Source: Sorangium cellulosum (GTDB lineage: Bacteria > Myxococcota_A > Polyangia > Polyangiales > Polyangiaceae). From it: a stretch of 47,478 bases of DNA. How positions within the stretch are numbered: the stretch's first letter is position 1; each line of letters begins with the position of its first letter. The notes beneath the pieces were generated by a model. The model saw nothing but the letters and a program-made list of their open reading frames with translations. It had not been told where the DNA came from and ran no database searches. Positions 4,208-15,573 of the stretch are shown here, piece after piece. The stretch spans positions 1-47,478 of the forward strand of contig DYPH01000014.1 in NCBI GenBank assembly GCA_020720045.1. Direction: 5' to 3'. Both the position numbers and the translations under genes were made by a program.

Positions 4208-5389
4208 TCAGTCGCAGCGGGTCGAAGCGTCGCCGCGGACGACGCAGGCGCAGCTCGTCTGCGATTTGCCGTCGTAGTCGACGCAGATCGCGCCGGAGCC
4301 GGTCTTCGACCAGAGGCAGTCGCGGCCGGAAGAGCCGCAGGCGCTCGCGACCGCCGGGCGTGCTTGCGTGCACGGGGTCGACGTCCCGGTCACGAGGCAG
4401 CCGCACGCGACGCTCGCGCCGTCTTTCGCGCAGGTCGCCCCTTTTCCGAAGGACGACCAAATGCAGGCGGTTCCGCCGCTTGCGCCGCAGGTCTGCCCGA
4501 CGGTCGCTCGCGGCGCCGGATCTTCGCAGTCCTGGCAGGTCGGCTTGGCGTCGTTCGGCATCCCCTTGGCGCCAGCGAGCGCCTGCACGGACGGGGAGGC
4601 GGTCGGGAGCGCGAACTTGTAGCCGGCGGTCTTCATCCACGGGACGAGGAGCTTCACCATCTCCACGGTCTGCGACTTCAGGTCGTGCATCAGGATGAAG
4701 CCCCGCTTCGCGCTGCGGAGCATCGCCTGGTAGCCGGTGAGGCAGGTGGCGACCGAGGTGTTCGACGACCAGCAGGCGTAGTCGGCTTTGTAGTTCACGC
4801 CGCCGATCTGCACGTTGTCGCCGGCGCTCCAGTGGATCGGCCCGAGGTAGTCGACCTTGAGGCGGCTGTTGAGCGTCGCCGACGTCGTCGCGTCCCAGCT
4901 CCCGCCCGGCGTCCGAAGGAGGAAGGGGCCCCGCGGCTGGAGGGCGGCGATGTCGCTATGGACGCGCATGACCTCGTCGACCTGCGTGTCAGCGGAGAGC
5001 GACGCGTAGCGAGTGCTGTTGCACGGCGCGGCCGTGGCGCCCGCGTAGCAGTGATTTTCGGTGTGGTTCGCGAGGAGGTGGCCGGCCTTGACGATCGCGC
5101 TCAGCCGCCGCTGGTAGGCGCTGTCGCCCCGGTGGTAGCCGTTGACGAAGAAGGTCGCGGCGATCCCCTGGTCGTGGAGCCAGTTGGCGAGCCCTTCGGT
5201 GACGGCGCTCGGCCCGTCGTCGAAGGTGAGGGCGAAGGTCCCGACGGGGAGATCGAGCCCTTTCAAGTTCGACGGCGACGTGAGTTCGTCCCCCTCGGGG
5301 GAAGCGACCTCTTCGGCCTCTCCGCCGCAGGCAGCGGCCGCCACGAGAAGGGCAAACGGGAGCACGGCGAGGGGGAAGAACTTGCGCAT
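4208..5389 (-). CDS. polysaccharide deacetylase lipoprotein (NodB/CE4) with Cys-rich tail
   Basis: Encodes 393 residues. A signal peptide ends at AAAC (Cys21, lipobox). The NodB-fold catalytic domain spans about residues 50-265: TFDDGPS (Asp57 base, Asp58 metal ligand), NHTENH (His109 and His113 metal ligands), RTPGGSWD (motif 3) and FILMHD (motif 5 His). CE4 enzymes remove N- or O-acetyl groups from chitin, peptidoglycan or other glycans in a metal-dependent reaction. Residues 284-393 form a cysteine-rich tail with two similar modules (about 298-333 and 347-383), each with a C-I/L-W-S...C...C-x-C pattern, which may bind glycan or cell wall. A 42-bp repeat array begins about 50 bases upstream of its start. 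Confidence 0.88.
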   Translation of the reverse strand: MRKFFPLAVLPFALLVAAAACGGEAEEVASPEGDELTSPSNLKGLDLPVGTFALTFDDGPSAVTEGLANWLHDQGIAATFFVNGYHRGDSAYQRRLSAIVKAGHLLANHTENHCYAGATAAPCNSTRYASLSADTQVDEVMRVHSDIAALQPRGPFLLRTPGGSWDATTSATLNSRLKVDYLGPIHWSAGDNVQIGGVNYKADYACWSSNTSVATCLTGYQAMLRSAKRGFILMHDLKSQTVEMVKLLVPWMKTAGYKFALPTASPSVQALAGAKGMPNDAKPTCQDCEDPAPRATVGQTCGASGGTACIWSSFGKGATCAKDGASVACGCLVTGTSTPCTQARPAVASACGSSGRDCLWSKTGSGAICVDYDGKSQTSCACVVRGDASTRCD

Positions 5390-5439
5390 CCCTCCAAGGT
5401 CTCACAGGCGACGGCAACCTTGCAATGCCTGAGGCGGCG

Positions 5440-5760
5440 CCGAGCGAACGAACGCTCCGAAGAGCCCGCGAACAGGCATGTGGGGGCGATCGATCGCTCG
5501 AAAGTGCCCGTCAACAGGCGTTGGGGAGCGATCGATGGCTCGGAGGCGGCTGCGAAGAGGCGTTTGGGAGCGATCAATCGCTCGAAAGAGGCCGCCAACA
5601 GGCACTCGGGAGCGATCGATCGCTCAAAAGTGGCCGCCAACAGGCACTCGGGAGCGATCAATGGCTCGGAGGCGGCTACGAACAGGCGTTCGGGAGCGAT
5701 CGATCGCTCGAAAAAGCCTGCAAACAGGTGTTTAGGAGCGATCGATGGCTCGCTTGGTTG
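5440..5760. repeat. 42-bp tandem palindromic repeat array A (8 units)
   Basis: Eight units recur at an exact 42-bp period, with core starts at 5444, 5486, 5528, 5570, 5612, 5654, 5696 and 5738. The core is GCGATCGATCGC within AGCGATCGATCGCT; some units carry GATCAATC or GATGGC variants, and the first is diverged (GCGAACGAACGC). Spacers alternate between two related forms (GTGGCCGCCAACAGG-like and GGCGGCTGCGAAGAGG-like). The same family forms a second array at 11.5 kb. No gene is apparent in 5390-5899 apart from this array. Because 42 is a multiple of 3, several frames stay open across it; this looks incidental. Confidence 0.93.
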
Positions 5761-5780
5761 GGAATCGCCAGCCTCTGACC

Positions 5781-5827
5781 GCGCGTCCGTACGGTCGCGC
5801 TGAAATCTCTTGTTTCTGTTTTTTTTT
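5781..5827 (+). terminator. possible intrinsic terminator downstream of array A
   Basis: A hairpin GCGCG-TCCG-TACGGT-CGCGC (5781-5800) is followed after about 10 bases by a T-rich tract ending in nine T (5819-5827). The gap between stem and T run is longer than usual, so this is a weak call. If real, it would stop plus-strand transcription coming out of the repeat array, before the lipoprotein gene at 5900. Confidence 0.3.
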
Positions 5828-5899
5828 CGGCACCTTGGGATCGCCTTCGGCGCGGACGGCTTTCGTCCCGACCTCCGACGGCATGCAAGGAGTACCGCC

Positions 5900-6415
5900 A
5901 TGAGATGGTTTTGGATTTGTGTAGGTTTGCCGGCACTTGCCGCGTGTTCCCACGGGGAACCGGGCACGGACGTCGGAAGTCAGTCGCAGGCAGTCGTGGC
6001 CGCCGCGAAGCCGGCGCCGAGTAGCGAAGGCCGGGCGCTGCCGTCCGCGAGCGCTCGTGGCTTCGCGCCCCTGGACCCAGTTCCGGCGGGGCCTGCCGAG
6101 GCGCCGAAGCGTGGCGACGATGGCACGCCACTCCCCACGAAGGTCGTGTCGTTCACGGAGCCAGCTCCCGACCCAGAACGCGATGTGACCGCCGCTCGCC
6201 GCGCCGACAAAGCGCAAGCCTCCCGGGACAAGGGGGAATCGAAAGACGCGACGCAATTGCCTGCGCCAGTGTCGGCGGCGGCGCTCGCAAAGCAACATGC
6301 CTATCTCGCGAAGGCGGCGGAGCGCCTTGCAGCGCGTGGGGGGAAAGAATCTGACGAAGACGGTGCTGCCGAGGCCGCATCGAAAGCCGCCGCTCTCGCA
6401 GGAGGTGCCAAATGA
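5900..6415 (+). CDS. small secreted lipoprotein, first gene of a protease operon
   Basis: Encodes 171 residues. I chose the ATG at 5900 because AAGGAG sits about 7 bases upstream and the signal peptide (MRWFWICVGLPALAAC, lipobox LAAC) starts there. The mature chain is Ala/Pro/Lys-rich and low in complexity, with a predicted charged helical segment near residues 125-160. No family is recognised. Its TGA overlaps the ATG of the next gene (ATGA at 6412), so it is translationally coupled to the metalloprotease and may be an accessory or tethering factor for it. That role is inferred from position only. Confidence 0.75.
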   Translation: MRWFWICVGLPALAACSHGEPGTDVGSQSQAVVAAAKPAPSSEGRALPSASARGFAPLDPVPAGPAEAPKRGDDGTPLPTKVVSFTEPAPDPERDVTAARRADKAQASRDKGESKDATQLPAPVSAAALAKQHAYLAKAAERLAARGGKESDEDGAAEAASKAAALAGGAK

Positions 6416-9261
6416 AAAAGGCTTTTGCAGGTTTGCTTGCGGCCGCCGCGACGCTAGCGGTTACGTCCTCCGCACGTGCCGCCGCGAGCGTCACCGACGG
6501 GACCGCGGGCGCCTTTGCCATTCGATCGGTCTACGTTCCCGCCGGCTGCACGGTGACGGCGATGACGACGGGGCTGTCGGCAGGCGCCGACCCGATCCTC
6601 CACGTTCAGGCACCGAACGGCGCTTTCGTCGCAGGAAACGACGACTACGCCGGGATGGGCACCGGCTCCCGCGTCGACTTTTACCAACCGACGGCCCAGA
6701 CGCTCACCTTCCTCGTGCGTGCCTACGACGCGAGCTACGAGGGCAGCGGGACGCTCTCGGTCCAACAGAGTGGCGCGGCCTGTGGCTCCGCCTACAGTTC
6801 GTCGCTCGTCTTCAAGGCCGGTCTCCGCGTCGACCTGGGCTCGACGGCCTGGAACACGCGGCTTCGAACGGTTCAGCCACCCGGCGGGCTCTACGACACG
6901 GTGATGCTTTACGTCACGACGACCCCCGCTCACGCGCTGAGCTATGATGACGACGCCGGGATGAACTTCAGCTCGAAAATCGACGTCGGCTCGACGCAGG
7001 CATGTGCTTCGGCGTGTTACGCGGTCATCGGTGGCTACGGAGACACGGGCGCCGTTCGGCTCACCCGGGACGATGACGTGCTCTGGAGCGATGCCGATGG
7101 CGACGGTCTCGGTGCTGGGCTTGAGCAGGTGCTCCTCACAAGCGCTTCAAACTCCGACACCGACGGCGATGGCATCTCCGACGGCACGGAGGTGATGGGG
7201 ATCGACGATCTTTACGGTCGTTATCCCTTCTACGGGGCCTCGCCGACGCAACGCGATCTCTTCCTCGAAGACGATTGGCGAAAGTGCGTCCCAGGTGCGC
7301 CATTAGACGGGCCGTGCGTGGACGGTACCGGCAGTGTCAACGTCGATCTGTATCGTTGGGGACCGGCCCAAGTTGCCATCATGGTCGCCAAGTTTACCGA
7401 CGCGAACATTCGTGTTCATGTCGACAACGGCATCACCCCCGTGGGCACGACCACCGACTACGGGAACTGGGGAGGAGCGACTTCCGTCGACGGATCGAAT
7501 CCAGAAGAAGCCTACGTCGGTTGCGACTACCTGACTGCCGGGCGCAACGGTTTTCACGGCCTCTTTTCAAGCGACGGAGCTGGGGGTGTCTCGGGGGTTC
7601 GAGCGCGCTGCTTCCTGTCGGGGCAGGACGCGAGTGCCGGGAGCCATGAATTCGGCCACGCGCTCGGCCTCGACCACCACGGCAAACGCGTAACCACGCC
7701 CTTGAACTGCAAGCCGAACTACCCGTCGTTGATGAACTATGCCTACGACAACGGCAGCAGCGACCGGGTCAACGCGCGTTTTTCGCACGCGACGCGAATG
7801 ACCACTTCCGCGGGCATTCCCGTGACCCTCAATCCGAGCCTCCTCATCGAGTCGGATGGAGTCGGCCCCTACACGACCGACAAGCACAACCTCCTTGCGA
7901 CGAAGCCGTTTGCACTTGACCTTACGGCACAAGGGGTCGACTGGGACCGCGATGGTGTTATTTCCTCGGTCCCGACACGTGCCGCCATCAGCTGGAACGT
8001 GGAATCGAATGCCGATTGTGGTGCAGGGACCTACGCGCTCGACGAGTGGAACAACCGGGGAGAGTCGACGCACATGGCGCTCGGCTGGATGCCGGAAGGG
8101 GGCACGGCGCCCCTGCCACGGCTCTTCTGGGTCAATCGGCGCTTCGTCGACGATCAGCTCATGTACCGGTATGTCGCGAAGCCCAACTCTCTACCCGCAA
8201 ACGGCAAGTGGGAGCTCGCGCGCTCGTGCGGAGAAACGCCGAATGACGACTGCAATACGCAGTGGTACCCGAGCCGGACCAATCTCCCGTTGCCGATCCC
8301 GGTCCCGTTCGCATCGATCCTTCCGACGGCCGTCGTCGGCTACAACGCGCCGGGGTCCAATCAGGCCCATGTCGTCGTCTTCGCAAACCTAAAAGGTCAA
8401 AACCAGATCGCGTACGTCGTCTTCAACGGCACGTCGTGGTCGACCGTGCAGAACTTTCCGGGAGATTTCGCTGCGAGCGGGCCGCCAACCGCGGTTCGTC
8501 AAGGCGATTATCTGTATGTGTACGCGCCGTACAATGGGCGTCTCCGCGAGTGGTATTACAACATCTTGACCAACCAGTGGTCCGGTCCCAACGATCAATA
8601 CGATTCGAACTTTCAATTGCTTCCTGTGGGGAATGCCGGGGCCACCGTCACGGTGGGGTACCTATCGGTCTCGGGTACGACCTTTTTCGGAAAGGTGATC
8701 GCCTACGTCGATACGAACGACGTTCTTCGTACCGCCTACCGCGACGTACTCTGGCAGGCTCTACCGGCGCCCTACTCGAAGCGCACGAGAGGTCTGTTTG
8801 GCGTGTACACGGAGACTCCGTATTCCGTGTTTGAACGTCCGAGTATCAGCTATGTCCCTGCCGGCGCCAATCAGCTCGCTTCCGTGGGACGCTACTACAT
8901 CGCCTGGAACGGCCGCGCACAAACCGACGCAATTGGTCCGGCCTACCTTGTGATGTCTCAGGGGAATGTCGTCGATTCGACGACCGGTTTCCGACAGTAC
9001 AAATGGAACATTCCAAAGACCCGATTCATCAACGCCGAGGCTTCAATGCGAGGAAGCATCGCGACGATCTTCGACCCTGCTTACGACACAAACCTTCACG
9101 CGGCGTGGGCGAGTGCCGGATTTGATGAAGACGCTGCCCCGAAGTTTGCCCCAATCGCCGACGACATCGTCGACGCTCCCATCCGGGATGTGAATGACCT
9201 TTTCATCCTTCACAGCAATATGGCGTGCAGCCTCTATAACCCCGGGGCTTGCCCCCAATGA
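6412..9261 (+). CDS. secreted zinc metalloprotease (metzincin type) with Ca-binding repeats
   Basis: Encodes 949 residues. The signal peptide MKKAFAGLLAAAATLAVTSS ends near ARAAA. Residues 25-220 look like two beta-sandwich (PPC-like) modules. Residues 227-260 hold two acidic calcium-loop repeats (DADGDG and DTDGDG, thrombospondin-3-like). The catalytic motif HEFGHALGLDH gives the full metzincin HExxHxxGxxH pattern (His412, Glu413, His416, His422), and SLMNY near residue 441 fits a Met-turn. Residues 550-949 form a beta-rich, aromatic region (repeats such as AYVVFNGTSW) that resembles propeller or lectin blades. It should be exported and cleave extracellular protein. It is the middle gene of a three-gene operon with ATGA overlaps on both sides. 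Confidence 0.85.
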   Translation: MKKAFAGLLAAAATLAVTSSARAAASVTDGTAGAFAIRSVYVPAGCTVTAMTTGLSAGADPILHVQAPNGAFVAGNDDYAGMGTGSRVDFYQPTAQTLTFLVRAYDASYEGSGTLSVQQSGAACGSAYSSSLVFKAGLRVDLGSTAWNTRLRTVQPPGGLYDTVMLYVTTTPAHALSYDDDAGMNFSSKIDVGSTQACASACYAVIGGYGDTGAVRLTRDDDVLWSDADGDGLGAGLEQVLLTSASNSDTDGDGISDGTEVMGIDDLYGRYPFYGASPTQRDLFLEDDWRKCVPGAPLDGPCVDGTGSVNVDLYRWGPAQVAIMVAKFTDANIRVHVDNGITPVGTTTDYGNWGGATSVDGSNPEEAYVGCDYLTAGRNGFHGLFSSDGAGGVSGVRARCFLSGQDASAGSHEFGHALGLDHHGKRVTTPLNCKPNYPSLMNYAYDNGSSDRVNARFSHATRMTTSAGIPVTLNPSLLIESDGVGPYTTDKHNLLATKPFALDLTAQGVDWDRDGVISSVPTRAAISWNVESNADCGAGTYALDEWNNRGESTHMALGWMPEGGTAPLPRLFWVNRRFVDDQLMYRYVAKPNSLPANGKWELARSCGETPNDDCNTQWYPSRTNLPLPIPVPFASILPTAVVGYNAPGSNQAHVVVFANLKGQNQIAYVVFNGTSWSTVQNFPGDFAASGPPTAVRQGDYLYVYAPYNGRLREWYYNILTNQWSGPNDQYDSNFQLLPVGNAGATVTVGYLSVSGTTFFGKVIAYVDTNDVLRTAYRDVLWQALPAPYSKRTRGLFGVYTETPYSVFERPSISYVPAGANQLASVGRYYIAWNGRAQTDAIGPAYLVMSQGNVVDSTTGFRQYKWNIPKTRFINAEASMRGSIATIFDPAYDTNLHAAWASAGFDEDAAPKFAPIADDIVDAPIRDVNDLFILHSNMACSLYNPGACPQ

Positions 9262-10550
9262 AGGTGGTCAAGCAATTCGTAAGCCTTGCAGCGCTCGTCG
9301 CGTCGATTTCCGGACTCAGCTGTACCTCGTCAAATGGTTCGTCGACGGCAGATGCAGGCGTTCGGAGCGACGCGACCCCGGAGGTCCCCGCGTGCCTCGT
9401 CGATCCTCCGAGCTACACGCCGACCGCACCTTCTGCGCCGCTCGCGGTGACGCCGAAGGTGCTCTGGACGAAGCCGCTGGGGTTCAAGGCGTCGCCGAAG
9501 ACTCCACTATTTGTCACGGCGGACGGCATCGTCGTCGCTTCCGGCGACGGTGTACGGATTTACGACCGAGAGGGGAACGTCAAGCGCTCCTTCTTCTTCC
9601 GCGGGATCGGAGGTTCCAATCGCATCCCGATGGTGGTCGGTCCCGACGATCGCATCTACGTCGGTTCGGACACGCTTCATCGCATTGATCCTGACGGGAC
9701 CGACACGCAATACCGGCTCTCTCTCGGGACGAACATCGTGCGGGGCGGGGAGAGCAAGGCGTGGGTTTCCCAACTCGCGCTCGGCCCGAATGGTGTGCTC
9801 CACGTCCTCGGGAGCGATGGGGCCCTGCACGGTTTTGACCACGACGGTCGCGAAATCTACACACAACAAATCGCGACGGGCGACCTTGTGTATCAGCCGA
9901 GGATGGCAGGGATGGGGGCGACGATCCTCATTTCAGAGACGCTCTTCGATGCCAGAGATGGCAGAAGGCTCGGCCGCTCGCACATCAACGGGGACCGGTG
10001 GGCAATCCAGTTGGGAGCTAACGGCCAGCGGCTGTTGGCAAACACGATGACGCCGACTTTGGAATTCGCCGTCGTAGACGCCTGCGGAAAAACGCTTCGA
10101 GCATTTCCTCGATTTACAGAAACTGCGGTTCCTGTACTCAGTGCTCTTGGAGCATGTTCGATTTGGATGGAGAGCCTCAGCCCAAACAACCGCCTGTTAA
10201 TTCGGACGGATAGCCTTGGGCGAGAAGTAAAGCGCCTTTTCCCCTATTTCGGTCTGCCGAATGTGCTTGGCGCAGACGGTACGCTGTATGCGGTCGGGAA
10301 GCCCGCTGGCGAAAGCCTCCTGGTTGCGCTTTCCGAAGACTTCGAAGAAAAGTGGCGCCTCCCGCTGCCCAGCGGACCGCCGTACTCAAGCTCGGGTCTT
10401 GGGAATGACGGTGTTCTTTACCTCGCCGACGACATCGGCGACACGCTTACCGCCGTTCAGACGGGAAGCCCTGGGCTTGCCAGCGTGCCGAATCCGTTTT
10501 CCCCGCTTGGTTTCCTTGAAAGCCCCACGAACTGGGTCGGCGACAAGTAA
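9258..10550 (+). CDS. beta-propeller lipoprotein (PQQ/NHL-like repeats)
   Basis: Encodes 430 residues. The ATG at 9258 overlaps the upstream TGA (ATGA) and begins a signal peptide ending in the lipobox GLSC. Repeated blocks such as FVTADGIVVASGDGVRIYD, VGPDDRIYVGSD, LGPNGVLHVLGSDG and LGADGTLYAVG have the spacing of PQQ-like or NHL beta-propeller blades, with about six to seven blades over residues 70-420. These propellers usually act as binding scaffolds rather than enzymes. Coupling to the metalloprotease suggests a partner or substrate-presenting role on the cell surface, which is inference. A hairpin terminator follows the stop. Confidence 0.78.
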   Translation: MKVVKQFVSLAALVASISGLSCTSSNGSSTADAGVRSDATPEVPACLVDPPSYTPTAPSAPLAVTPKVLWTKPLGFKASPKTPLFVTADGIVVASGDGVRIYDREGNVKRSFFFRGIGGSNRIPMVVGPDDRIYVGSDTLHRIDPDGTDTQYRLSLGTNIVRGGESKAWVSQLALGPNGVLHVLGSDGALHGFDHDGREIYTQQIATGDLVYQPRMAGMGATILISETLFDARDGRRLGRSHINGDRWAIQLGANGQRLLANTMTPTLEFAVVDACGKTLRAFPRFTETAVPVLSALGACSIWMESLSPNNRLLIRTDSLGREVKRLFPYFGLPNVLGADGTLYAVGKPAGESLLVALSEDFEEKWRLPLPSGPPYSSSGLGNDGVLYLADDIGDTLTAVQTGSPGLASVPNPFSPLGFLESPTNWVGDK

Positions 10551-10576
10551 CCCGTCCGCTCCTCTCGACGATCAAG

Positions 10577-10616
10577 CCCCCGCGTGCCTCCCGGTACGTG
10601 GGGGTTCTCGTTTTTC
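10577..10616 (+). terminator. intrinsic terminator of the metalloprotease operon
   Basis: A 12-bp stem (CCCCCGCGTGCC with GGTACGTGGGGG, two G-T wobbles) with a 4-base loop is followed by TTCTCGTTTTT. It lies 26 bases after the stop of the propeller lipoprotein gene. Confidence 0.75.
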
Positions 10617-10691
10617 AACGACCTCCACAAAAACACCTCGCCCGGTCGAATCCCCTTGAACGAAACTTCGACCTTTGGTGTCGTTTTGCGC

Positions 10692-11492
10692 ATGGCAACC
10701 AAGAAGAAAGCTGCAAACGTTCCCGCGGAAAGTGCTCGTCTTGAGGCGCTTCGACCGGCGCTGGATGCGATGCCGGCCGACGCACTAAAGTCGCCCCTCG
10801 GACCGTTGATGACGATGGTCGTTGGGGCGCTCTCGCTCCTGGAACATGCGCGCGTTCCGACCCGCTTTACGCTGTTGAGTAAGCTGCATCCGGACGTGTT
10901 TGATCCGAACACGCTTCCGCGCCTCGAAGCGACCGCCGCGTTGTTGAGCGAGCTGGCGGTTGCCGCCGAACAGGAGGCGGCCCAGGCGATTTCCGCGAAA
11001 GTAAATGCGGCGACCATCGAAAAAGCGTCGCTCATCAAAGGGCGCCTCCAGCGGGTGCTCGAGTACCAACTGACCGACGAAGTGTCGGTGCGTGAGCTCG
11101 ATGGAATTCGCCCGGGGACGAGCTACAAAGACCTCGCGACCGACCTGGTTCGGCTCGCGGTGCTCGCCGAGAACCACCCGGCGGAAATCGCCGGGGACCG
11201 TCACTTCGTCGCGACCGATCCGGCCGACGCCCGGACCTTTGCGGACGCGATCTTGGCCGACCTTGGGACCTCGCTCGCCGGCCTCGAGACGGAGAGCGAT
11301 GACACGCGCGCCCGCGTGGTGACGTTGCTCATCAATGACTACGCGGAGGTGCTTGCCGCGTTGAATTTCGTCGGTCGCCACGAGCTTCAGGCCGAGAAGG
11401 AGAAGCGGAAGCCGCTGCGCGCCGTCGTCCAGCCGAAGCGGGGCAAGGCCCCCACACCGACCGACCCGAGCACCCCGACCGACCCGACCTGA
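10692..11492 (+). CDS. hypothetical cytosolic helical protein
   Basis: Encodes 266 residues with no signal peptide. The start at 10692 gives MATKKKAANVP, a Lys-rich beginning; the long upstream extension would read through the preceding terminator and is not credible. Most of the protein is predicted helical, with conserved-looking blocks ALRPALDAMPADALKSP and RPGTSYKDLATDLVRLAVL. The last 20 residues are a Pro/Thr/Asp repeat (TPTDPSTPTDPT). I do not recognise the family. The second 42-bp array starts only a few bases after its stop codon. Confidence 0.7.
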   Translation: MATKKKAANVPAESARLEALRPALDAMPADALKSPLGPLMTMVVGALSLLEHARVPTRFTLLSKLHPDVFDPNTLPRLEATAALLSELAVAAEQEAAQAISAKVNAATIEKASLIKGRLQRVLEYQLTDEVSVRELDGIRPGTSYKDLATDLVRLAVLAENHPAEIAGDRHFVATDPADARTFADAILADLGTSLAGLETESDDTRARVVTLLINDYAEVLAALNFVGRHELQAEKEKRKPLRAVVQPKRGKAPTPTDPSTPTDPT

Positions 11493-11499
11493 GTTGCGC

Positions 11500-11820
11500 C
11501 ACGAGCGATCGATCGCTCGAAACTGGCCGCCAACAGGTGTTTTGAAGCGATCGATCGCTCGAAAGAGGCCGGTAACAGGCGTTTGGGGGCGATCAATCGC
11601 TCGGGAGTGCCTGTGAAGCGGCGTCTCGGGGCGATCGATCGCTCGAAAGAGGCTGCGAACAGCCGTTTGGGAGCAATCGATCGCTCGAAAGTGGCTGCCA
11701 ACAGGTGTTTCGGAGCGATCGATCGCTCGGAAGTGGCCGCCAACAGGTGTTTCGGAGCGATCGATCGCTTGGAAGTGGCTGCGAACAGCCGTTCGGGAGC
11801 AATCGATCGCTCAAACGCCC
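11500..11820. repeat. 42-bp tandem palindromic repeat array B (8 units)
   Basis: Eight units at an exact 42-bp period have core starts at 11505, 11547, 11589, 11631, 11673, 11715, 11757 and 11799. Most cores are the perfect palindrome GCGATCGATCGC; single changes (GATCAATC, GCAATC) occur in three. The orientation matches array A. The 120 bases from the array to the next gene hold nothing I recognise except the ribosome site AGGAG before 11942. Confidence 0.94.
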
Positions 11821-11941
11821 CGGGCAGACCACCGCCGCCGCGACAAACGTGACCTTCGCGGCGATCCAGGCGATTCTGATCGATGCCCGTTCGTGGCGCG
11901 CAGGTCGCGCGTCGGTCCGGGGTTGCCCTTAGGAGTCCTCG

Positions 11942-13306: not shown

Positions 13307-13331
13307 GGTGGATGGTACCTGCGCGTACCTG

Positions 13332-13380
13332 CCCAAAAGGAAAGGCGCCCCGCAAAGGGCGCCTTTTTCTTTGGGGTTCT
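13332..13380. terminator. bidirectional palindromic terminator, copy 1
   Basis: A long near-perfect hairpin has inner arms GGCGCCC and GGGCGCC around CGCAAA, extended outward by A-rich and T-rich flanks, so both strands have a T run after the stem. It sits 25 bases after the MYXO-CTERM gene. A nearly identical copy lies at 15350-15400, on the other side of the ATPase/HNH cassette. Confidence 0.8.
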
Positions 13381-13456: not shown

Positions 13457-14761
13457 ATGCTTCGGAGTATGGAATTGGGCGGCATCGGCCCCGCGATGCG
13501 ACTCGGCCCCGTCGAATTTGCGGAACGGCTCAACCTGGTCACCGGCGACAATGGGCTTGGGAAGACGTTTTTGCTCGACATCGGTTGGTGGGCACTGACC
13601 GGCACGTGGGTGGCGCGCGAGCCGTGGCCGCGGAACGAGACGACCCGCGAGGAGCCCCCGTACATTTCTTCAACCGTCGCAGGGAAAACGACCGACGCTC
13701 CCGTCCATAGCGCCTACGACTTTGACGCGCGAAAGTGGTCGTACCCGGCCGGGCGGCCGCCGATGCCGGGCCTCGTTCTCTACTTTCGCGGCGACGGATG
13801 TTTTTCCCTCTGGGACCCGGCGCAGCATTACTGGACGAAATCGGCAGCGGACGAGCGGGTGGACGATGCCTTTCACTTCACCCTCGACTCCGTGTGGGAT
13901 GGAATTATGGGGGTGGGTGGGCAGAGAATCTGTCGTGGCTTGATTGAAGACTGGGTGACCTGGCAGCAGACCGGCGGGCTTGAGTTTCAGCGCTTTCAAA
14001 AGGTGCTTGCGAAGCTCTCGCCGAGCCCGAAGGAACTACTGACGTCGGGAACGCCGCTTGCCGCGCTTGCCCTTGACGCTACCGATCGTCGGCAACACCC
14101 AACGCTTCAGTTCGGTCATGGCACCGTGCCTGCCGTACTCGCGTCGGCCGGCATGAAGCGAATCCTCAGTCTCGCCTACCTCGTTGTATGGGCTTGGCAG
14201 GGGCATGAACTCGCCTCGGCAGCACGAAAGCAAGACCCCGAACAGCGGATGGTGATCCTGTTCGACGAACCGGAGACGCACCTTCATCCCCAGTGGCAAC
14301 GCCGAATTCTGCCGGCGCTATTTGCCGCCCTCGCGGAACTTCGGAATGACTTGCGCGCACAGATCCTCGTAGCGACCCATTCGCCGCTTATTCTTGCGTC
14401 GGTGGAATCGCTGTTTGATGCGGAAAAGGATCGTCTCTTTCATCTCGAAATTTGCAGCGACGAGCCGCCGACCAACGAAATGGAGGAGTTTCTCTTCGAG
14501 GAGCCGCGGGTAGAAATGAGAGAGGTGCCGTTCGCGAAGGAGGGGGACGCCTCCGCATGGCTCTCGTCGGACGTCTTCGGACTTACCCAGGCGCGGTCTC
14601 TCGAAGCCGAACGCGCGATCACCGCCGCCCAGCAATTTCAGCTTGGCAGCGCGGATGGGAACCCGGAAGGGTTGCGGACACGAGGCCAGATCGACGACGA
14701 ACTCAAGAAGGTCCTTGCGGCCGAAGATCCCTTCTGGCCGCGCTGGGTGATCCTCCCGTGA
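13457..14761 (+). CDS. AAA/ABC-type ATPase of a putative two-gene defence cassette
   Basis: Encodes 434 residues. It has the layout of the SMC/RecF-like AAA_21-type ATPases found in defence systems. Walker A is GDNGLGKT (residues 30-37, Lys36), followed by a central insert; a signature-like LASAGMKRILSLAY comes at about 228-241, Walker B is MVILFDEPETHLHP (Asp270, Glu271), and the switch is VATHSP (His308). The C-terminal 110 residues are acidic and may contact the partner. No transmembrane segment is seen. The last bases (GTGA) overlap the start of the HNH-like gene, so the two are coupled as in Septu (PtuA/PtuB). It may sense phage and control the nuclease; that function is inferred from the architecture. 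GC at third codon positions looks lower than in the neighbours. Confidence 0.85.
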   Translation: MLRSMELGGIGPAMRLGPVEFAERLNLVTGDNGLGKTFLLDIGWWALTGTWVAREPWPRNETTREEPPYISSTVAGKTTDAPVHSAYDFDARKWSYPAGRPPMPGLVLYFRGDGCFSLWDPAQHYWTKSAADERVDDAFHFTLDSVWDGIMGVGGQRICRGLIEDWVTWQQTGGLEFQRFQKVLAKLSPSPKELLTSGTPLAALALDATDRRQHPTLQFGHGTVPAVLASAGMKRILSLAYLVVWAWQGHELASAARKQDPEQRMVILFDEPETHLHPQWQRRILPALFAALAELRNDLRAQILVATHSPLILASVESLFDAEKDRLFHLEICSDEPPTNEMEEFLFEEPRVEMREVPFAKEGDASAWLSSDVFGLTQARSLEAERAITAAQQFQLGSADGNPEGLRTRGQIDDELKKVLAAEDPFWPRWVILP

Positions 14762-15330
14762 TCCCCGTTGCACCGGCCCCCGAACCGAAAGACTTCGACG
14801 CCAAGTGTCGGATCCCGGGCAACGCCTGGCTCCAAAGCAACCCGGGCACCGACCCGCATAGGAACGCGCTCTGGACCGCTTTCTCCAAAGAGCTTCGCAA
14901 AGCCTTCAACGACCGCTGCGGGATCCTTGGCATCTACATTCACGAAGGTCACGTCGATCACTGGGTCAGCCTAAGGACCGATCGTACACGCGCCTTTGAA
15001 TGGACGAACTACCGCTATCTCGCCGGCTCGGTGAACACCGCCAAGAAGCCGGCGTGGGACGGGAAACTCCTCGACCCCTTCGACGTCGGCGAGGGCTGGT
15101 TTGAGGTCGATCTTCCGAGCTGTCTGATCCGCTTGACGGACAAAATTCCCACGGAATTTCGGGCTAGGGCCCAATTCACGGCCGACAACATTTTGAATCG
15201 CCCGAAGCCCATCGCGTATCGCGCCGAGTGTCTCACACGTTGGAAGGAGAGGAAGGAAATCGCGGTCGCCGAGCTGCTCGCGCCGCTCGTGGCTGAAGCG
15301 ATTCGGCGGGACCCGAAGTACGGCGCGTGA
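14758..15330 (+). CDS. HNH-like nuclease partner of the ATPase
   Basis: Encodes 190 residues, starting with GTG at 14758 that overlaps the upstream TGA by 4 bases (GTGA). A longer upstream reading of this frame lies inside the ATPase gene and is not credible. The centre has an HNH/His-Me-finger pattern: GHVDHW (Asp67, His68), then EWTNYRYLAGSVNTAKK (Asn84, Asn93, Lys96) and LLDPFD. This is the same order as in PtuB and retron-associated HNH proteins, where V-D/E-H, W-x-N, N-x2-K and D-P-F recur. The usual zinc CxxC before the DH is absent (only Cys54 is present), so it is a metal-finger-less variant. DNA cleavage is likely but unproven. Confidence 0.75.
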   Translation: MIPVAPAPEPKDFDAKCRIPGNAWLQSNPGTDPHRNALWTAFSKELRKAFNDRCGILGIYIHEGHVDHWVSLRTDRTRAFEWTNYRYLAGSVNTAKKPAWDGKLLDPFDVGEGWFEVDLPSCLIRLTDKIPTEFRARAQFTADNILNRPKPIAYRAECLTRWKERKEIAVAELLAPLVAEAIRRDPKYGA

Positions 15331-15349: not shown

Positions 15350-15400
15350 GGCCCCAAAGGAAAGGCGCCCCGCAAAGGGCGCCTTTTCTTTGGGTTCCTA
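15350..15400. terminator. bidirectional palindromic terminator, copy 2
   Basis: This has the same sequence as the hairpin at 13332-13380 with a few changes: inner arms GGCGCCC/GGGCGCC around CGCAAA, flanked by AAAGG and CCTTTTCTTTGG. It sits 20 bases after the HNH-like gene and would also serve argG-side transcription. Confidence 0.8.
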
Positions 15401-15402
15401 AC

Positions 15403-15573
15403 CTGCGCGTCCGCCCGGAACCGCCGGAGGCGGTGAGGAAACGGCGCGCAGGACTGTAGCTGCGCGTCCGCCCGGAACCGCCGGAGGCGGTGAGGAAACG
15501 GCGCGCAGGACTGTAGCTGCGCGTCCGCCCGGAACCGCCGGAGGCGGTGAGGAAACGGCGCGCAGGATTGGAG
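15403..15573. repeat. three tandem 57-bp repeats
   Basis: Units start at 15403, 15460 and 15517 and are nearly identical; the third diverges after CGCAGGA. Each has inverted ends CTGCGCG and CGCGCAG and an inner hairpin CCGCC-GGA-GGCGG. They fill the gap between the terminator and the argG stop codon. Conserved ends (CGCGTCCG... and ...ACGGCGCG) resemble those of the 45-bp element found at 22.1 kb and 47.4 kb. Confidence 0.9.

What the first reader, a model, noticed from the sequence alone, without database searches (positions are those of the whole stretch)
13457..15330. Candidate two-gene ATPase plus HNH-like nuclease defence cassette
Seen directly: an AAA-type ATPase (Walker A GDNGLGKT, Walker B ILFDEPETH, switch His308) overlaps by 4 bases a 190-residue protein with a V-D-H...W-x-N...N-x2-K...D-P-F pattern. 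From knowledge: PtuA/PtuB (Septu) and retron-linked pairs have this same order of ATPase then HNH. Inference: this is a related but distinct system. The nuclease lacks the CxxC zinc pair found in PtuB-type proteins, and the ATPase Walker A reads DNGLGK rather than the common NGxGKS. The gene pair is flanked by matching terminators.
Basis: partly seen in the sequence, partly recalled or inferred. Interest (0 to 1): 0.78.

Follow-up and report, generated by a model that had tools for sequence, protein, structure and literature searches.

The report
Ordinary Septu (PtuA–PtuB) anti-phage gene pair
The two genes are a normal, already catalogued type of bacterial anti-phage defence called Septu (an ATPase plus an HNH nuclease), slotted recently between two ordinary genes of the chromosome.

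Summary
In detail: ptuA-like 13457-14761 and ptuB-like 14758-15330 overlap by 4 bases and lie between two near-identical terminators. The claim of a "related but distinct system" fails. Both proteins hit PADLOC Septu type I models over their full length (PtuA 4.6e-148; PtuB 6.2e-47). The predicted PtuB model (pLDDT 94) superposes along its whole length on E. coli Septu and retron PtuB (Z 12-15); other HNH folds follow at Z 6 or less. The PtuA model's best PDB match is E. coli Septu PtuA. The supposed difference, no CxxC zinc pair, is shared with PtuB of the solved E. coli Septu complex, so it is not diagnostic. Walker A GDNGLGKT is a normal NGxGK[ST] P-loop. Catalytic D67-H68, N84, N93 and K96 are invariant in 19 homologues. 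The pair is patchy (37 of 318 genomes of the class) and also on plasmids. A congener has the same site empty, with one terminator where this genome has terminator-ptuAB-terminator. Expected function: a PtuA oligomer restrains PtuB until infection, then PtuB cuts nucleic acid (DNA or tRNA; not decidable here). New member of a known kind; low interest. Side finding: about nine Septu-like loci in this genome.

The parts
13457..14761 (+). ptuA (ATPase, 434 aa)
   Evidence: PADLOC PtuA PDLC00307 4.6e-148, residues 1-432; Pfam AAA_21; best PDB fold match E. coli Septu PtuA 8eea_D 4.2e-15
14758..15330 (+). ptuB (HNH nuclease, 190 aa, GTG start)
   Evidence: PADLOC PtuB PDLC00348 6.2e-47, residues 1-185; model pLDDT 94; full-length superposition on PtuB chains, Z 12-15
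13544..13567 (+). Walker A G30-DNGLGK-T37
   Evidence: G30-K36 invariant in 20 homologues
14252..14281 (+). Walker B region, E271 invariant
14378..14380 (+). switch His308
   Evidence: invariant in 20 homologues
14917..14919 (+). Cys54, the only Cys kept from the retron-type CxxC position
   Evidence: invariant in 19 homologues; mapping onto CxYC
14956..14961 (+). HNH: Asp67-His68
   Evidence: invariant in 19 homologues; strand 64-68 of the model
15007..15009 (+). HNH: Asn84
   Evidence: invariant; same spacing from the His (16) as H75/N91 shown to be essential in Septu EcB88 (PMC13096335)
15034..15045 (+). HNH: Asn93-x2-Lys96
   Evidence: invariant; helix 90-95 of the model
13331..13374 (+). 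terminator T1, left direct repeat
   Evidence: its left side matches the empty site
15351..15394 (+). terminator T2, right direct repeat
   Evidence: its right side matches the empty site

Best explanation
The pair is a Septu type I anti-phage system (ptuA-ptuB), acquired recently as a roughly 2-kb cassette between the preceding gene and argG. Most likely working: PtuA, a RecF/Rad50-like ABC-type ATPase, assembles into an oligomer that binds PtuB subunits and keeps them inactive in the uninfected cell. Phage infection changes the nucleotide state or gives another trigger, and PtuB, a metal-dependent beta-beta-alpha HNH nuclease (D67-H68, N84, N93/K96), then cuts nucleic acid and stops phage production. 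Shown here: gene pair, family membership, folds, conserved catalytic residues, co-inheritance, patchy presence and an empty site. Inferred from studied relatives: oligomer, restraint, trigger. Unknown: substrate. Nicked phage DNA is reported for Septu of E. coli ATCC 25922, tRNA-Tyr for Septu EcB88.
For: Full-length PADLOC PtuA and PtuB matches; all 19 PtuB homologues match the same PtuB model. Fold matches: PtuB, PtuA. Invariant catalytic residues. The examined PtuB homologues lie directly downstream of ptuA in 19 of 19 loci, most with the 4-bp overlap. Found in 37 of 318 genomes of the class, also on plasmids of Allocoleopsis and Azotobacter. Flanking genes are unrelated between loci. Empty site in a congener. 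GC3 0.72-0.76 against 0.86-0.93 in the neighbours. Walker A/B and HNH residues are essential in Septu EcB88 (PMC13096335).
Against: PtuB has no Pfam match and only weak sequence similarity to solved PtuB chains (best E 0.0087 with a profile). No function was tested. The window itself is not a defence island: neighbours are argG, ligA and unassigned genes.
Confidence: 0.94

Rival explanations
1. A distinct ATPase-HNH defence system, separate from Septu, with a zinc-free nuclease.
For: No CxxC pair in any of 19 homologues while retron-type TIGR02646 proteins keep it; only about 14% identity to solved PtuB.
Against: PADLOC's Septu models already cover this cluster. The E. coli Septu PtuB of 8ee7 also lacks CxxC. 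Whole-chain fold match to PtuB only.
Confidence: 0.03
2. Effector pair of a type I-A retron (Septu type II).
For: Same ATPase-HNH order and folds.
Against: No reverse transcriptase among the adjacent genes; PtuA is 434 aa, against 550 aa for the retron I-A PtuA; the retron model TIGR02646 scores 12 bits against a cut-off of 52.
Confidence: 0.02
3. Housekeeping or DNA-repair pair without a defence role.
For: Sits near argG and ligA in this genome.
Against: Absent from the same site in the congener, patchy, unrelated neighbours elsewhere, present on plasmids.
Confidence: 0.02

Closest known systems
Septu type I (PtuA-PtuB), e.g. E. coli PtuAB 8EEA/8EE7 and Septu EcB88
   Same: Gene order, ATPase and HNH folds, P-loop, HNH His and Asn at the same spacing of 16 as in EcB88, no CxxC zinc pair in PtuB of 8EE7
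   Different: Low sequence identity (about 14-16%); shorter PtuB (190 against 243 aa); belongs to the branch modelled by PDLC00307/PDLC00348
Retron type I-A effectors PtuA-PtuB (Ec78/Eco7, Ec83; Septu type II)
   Same: ATPase plus HNH pair with the same folds
   Different: No reverse transcriptase beside the pair here; retron PtuB keeps CxYC; retron PtuA is about 550 aa
PARIS AriA / OLD-family ATPases
   Same: AAA_21/AAA_15 ABC-type ATPase
   Different: Far weaker match (AriA 9e-23 against PtuA 4.6e-148); no AriB or TOPRIM partner

Membership tests
Septu type I | PtuA: ABC-type ATPase matching the PtuA models over its full length | tested here: met
   PDLC00307 4.6e-148, residues 1-432; fold top match 8eea_D
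Septu type I | PtuB: HNH nuclease matching the PtuB models | tested here: met
   PDLC00348 6.2e-47, residues 1-185; Z 14.4 over 185 residues with 8eea_G
Septu type I | ptuA directly followed by ptuB | tested here: met
   4-bp overlap; same order in 19 of 19 homologous loci examined
Septu type I | Intact ATPase and HNH catalytic residues | tested here: met
   K36, E271, H308; D67, H68, N84, N93, K96 invariant
Septu type I | PtuA oligomer binding PtuB (6:2 in E. coli) | not testable with these tools
   needs complexes; only single chains were predicted
Septu type I | Protection against phages | not testable with these tools
   no experiment possible
Retron type I-A / Septu type II | Reverse transcriptase (PtuC) beside ptuAB | tested here: not met
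   adjacent genes are unassigned proteins, argG and ligA
Retron type I-A / Septu type II | TIGR02646-type PtuB with CxxC | tested here: not met
   12.2 bits against cut-off 52.15; single Cys54

The most novel reading that the evidence does not exclude
This PtuB branch (no zinc knuckle, one invariant Cys54, short chain) is a Septu subtype with its own substrate or trigger, different from the tRNA-Tyr and nicked-DNA cutting reported for E. coli systems.
Probability: 0.15. Interest if true: 0.35.

Novelty: new member of a known kind. Interest (0 to 1): 0.15.

Why it matters
Little for the pair itself, which standard defence annotation already names. Two points are useful. The "missing zinc pair" is no marker of a new system, because the E. 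coli Septu PtuB of known structure lacks it too. And an empty site in a congener documents recent gain or loss of a stand-alone Septu cassette bounded by duplicated terminators.

Tried and rejected
Single-protein scan of genome contigs with PtuB found no relative; the profile was not conserved enough for that scan. The viral-contig scan with the profile found no relative, which is weak evidence because only one pattern was used. The idea that duplicated terminators mark Septu cassettes in general was checked at 24 other loci: only L056 and L061 have direct repeats over 30 bp on both sides, so it is not general. The idea that absence of CxxC makes a new system was rejected. Rfam found only two tRNA-Gly in the window, so no known RNA family lies by the pair. 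The NSMB 2024 Septu structure paper is not held in the library.

Full report
Observation. The named motifs are present. In 20 PtuA homologues G30-D-N-G-L-G-K36, E271 and H308 do not vary; in 19 PtuB homologues C54, D67, H68, W82, N84, R86, N93, K96, D106 and P107 do not vary. The flanking terminators are real hairpins and their shared core occurs only at these two places in the whole genome.

Identity. PADLOC names the first protein PtuA (PDLC00307, 4.6e-148) and the second PtuB (PDLC00348, 6.2e-47), each over practically its whole length; all 19 PtuB homologues hit the same PtuB model. Pfam gives AAA_21/AAA_15 for PtuA and nothing for PtuB, and plasmid records call the relatives of PtuB "hypothetical protein", which explains why it can look new. 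The AlphaFold2 model of PtuB (mean pLDDT 94) aligns over 169-185 residues with PtuB chains of retron Ec78/Ec83 and of E. coli Septu at Z 12.1-15.4; the next folds, zinc HNH enzymes, Cap5 and Cas9 HNH domains, are at Z 6.1 or less over about 55-85 residues. The PtuA model (pLDDT 88) has E. coli Septu PtuA 8eea_D as its best match, and the first 47 matches are chains of Septu or retron PtuA complexes.

The zinc argument. Retron-type TIGR02646 proteins from this and related genomes mostly carry CxYC and a second Cys pair, and the branch of this PtuB keeps only the first Cys. But PtuB of the solved E. coli Septu complex (8ee7_C) reads CCYS at this site and shows no second CxxC in the aligned stretch. 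Loss of the zinc pair is thus shared with a canonical Septu and cannot define a distinct system. The P-loop GDNGLGKT is NGxGKT, an ordinary form.

Mobility. PtuB homologues occur in 37 of 318 genomes of the class, PtuA homologues in 11 of 59 close relatives, with four copies in one genome. In 19 loci taken with flanks, ptuB lies right after ptuA each time. The neighbouring genes of different loci are unrelated except in one pair of congeners and a few weak matches. Some neighbour proteins match other defence models (a second PtuA, a type I specificity subunit, Nsn and mad components), but this window is not a defence island: argG, ligA and unassigned genes. The pair also occurs on plasmids. 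In the congener G001 the same site is empty: the upstream gene (90% DNA identity), one terminator, then argG to ligA (97.8% identity over 2.1 kb). The left side of T1 and the right side of T2 match the two sides of the single terminator in G001. So the present arrangement is terminator-ptuAB-terminator against one terminator in the relative, by insertion here or loss there. Lower GC3 (0.72-0.76 against 0.86-0.93 in neighbours) favours insertion (inference).

Mechanism. From the published systems: E. coli Septu forms a 6:2 PtuA-PtuB complex that degrades phage DNA (review PMC12948488); [quoted passage not shown] retron Eco7 PtuAB depletes tRNA-Tyr while Eco4 likely does not target tRNA (PMC11555353). 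The His-Asn spacing in EcB88 (75-91) equals that here (68-84). The same scheme, an ATPase oligomer holding an HNH nuclease until infection, is the most likely working of this pair; the substrate cannot be told from sequence.

Side finding. The same genome holds about nine Septu-like loci: C194 (this one), C248 (same branch, 39% identical PtuA), two on C336, one on C122, two on C132, one on C334, and a PtuA near the end of C103. It has the most TIGR02646-type matches (eight) of the genomes searched; its congener has one.

Verdict. A real, well-conserved gene pair; a member of Septu type I, already covered by public defence models. New member of a known kind, low interest.

Noticed in passing
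Genome of the window: C194:13457-15330, C248:11786-13761, C336 (L098) 5080-7188 and 9770-11787, C122 (L099), C132 (L101, L102), C334 (L103), C103 (L100): About nine PtuA/PtuB-type loci of several branches in one 6.3-Mb genome; most TIGR02646 matches (eight) of the 60 genomes searched, the congener has one.
   Followed up: partly
window 15403-15573: Three tandem copies of a 57-nt unit that folds as a long hairpin (z -3.3); its core has 93 matches with up to 3 mismatches in the genome, often in tandem. The stretch is absent from the empty site of the congener. Not in Rfam.
   Followed up: partly
window 11461-11857 and about 5482-5714: 42-nt tandem minisatellite with the palindrome GCGATCGATCGC; 16 matches in the genome, 12 of them in this window.
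   Followed up: partly
L056 and L061, on both sides of ptuAB: Direct repeats of about 33 and 46 bp flank the pair at these two loci too, possibly insertion scars.
   Followed up: no
L067 (G038) 8344-9585: A PtuA homologue without a detectable PtuB downstream.
   Followed up: no
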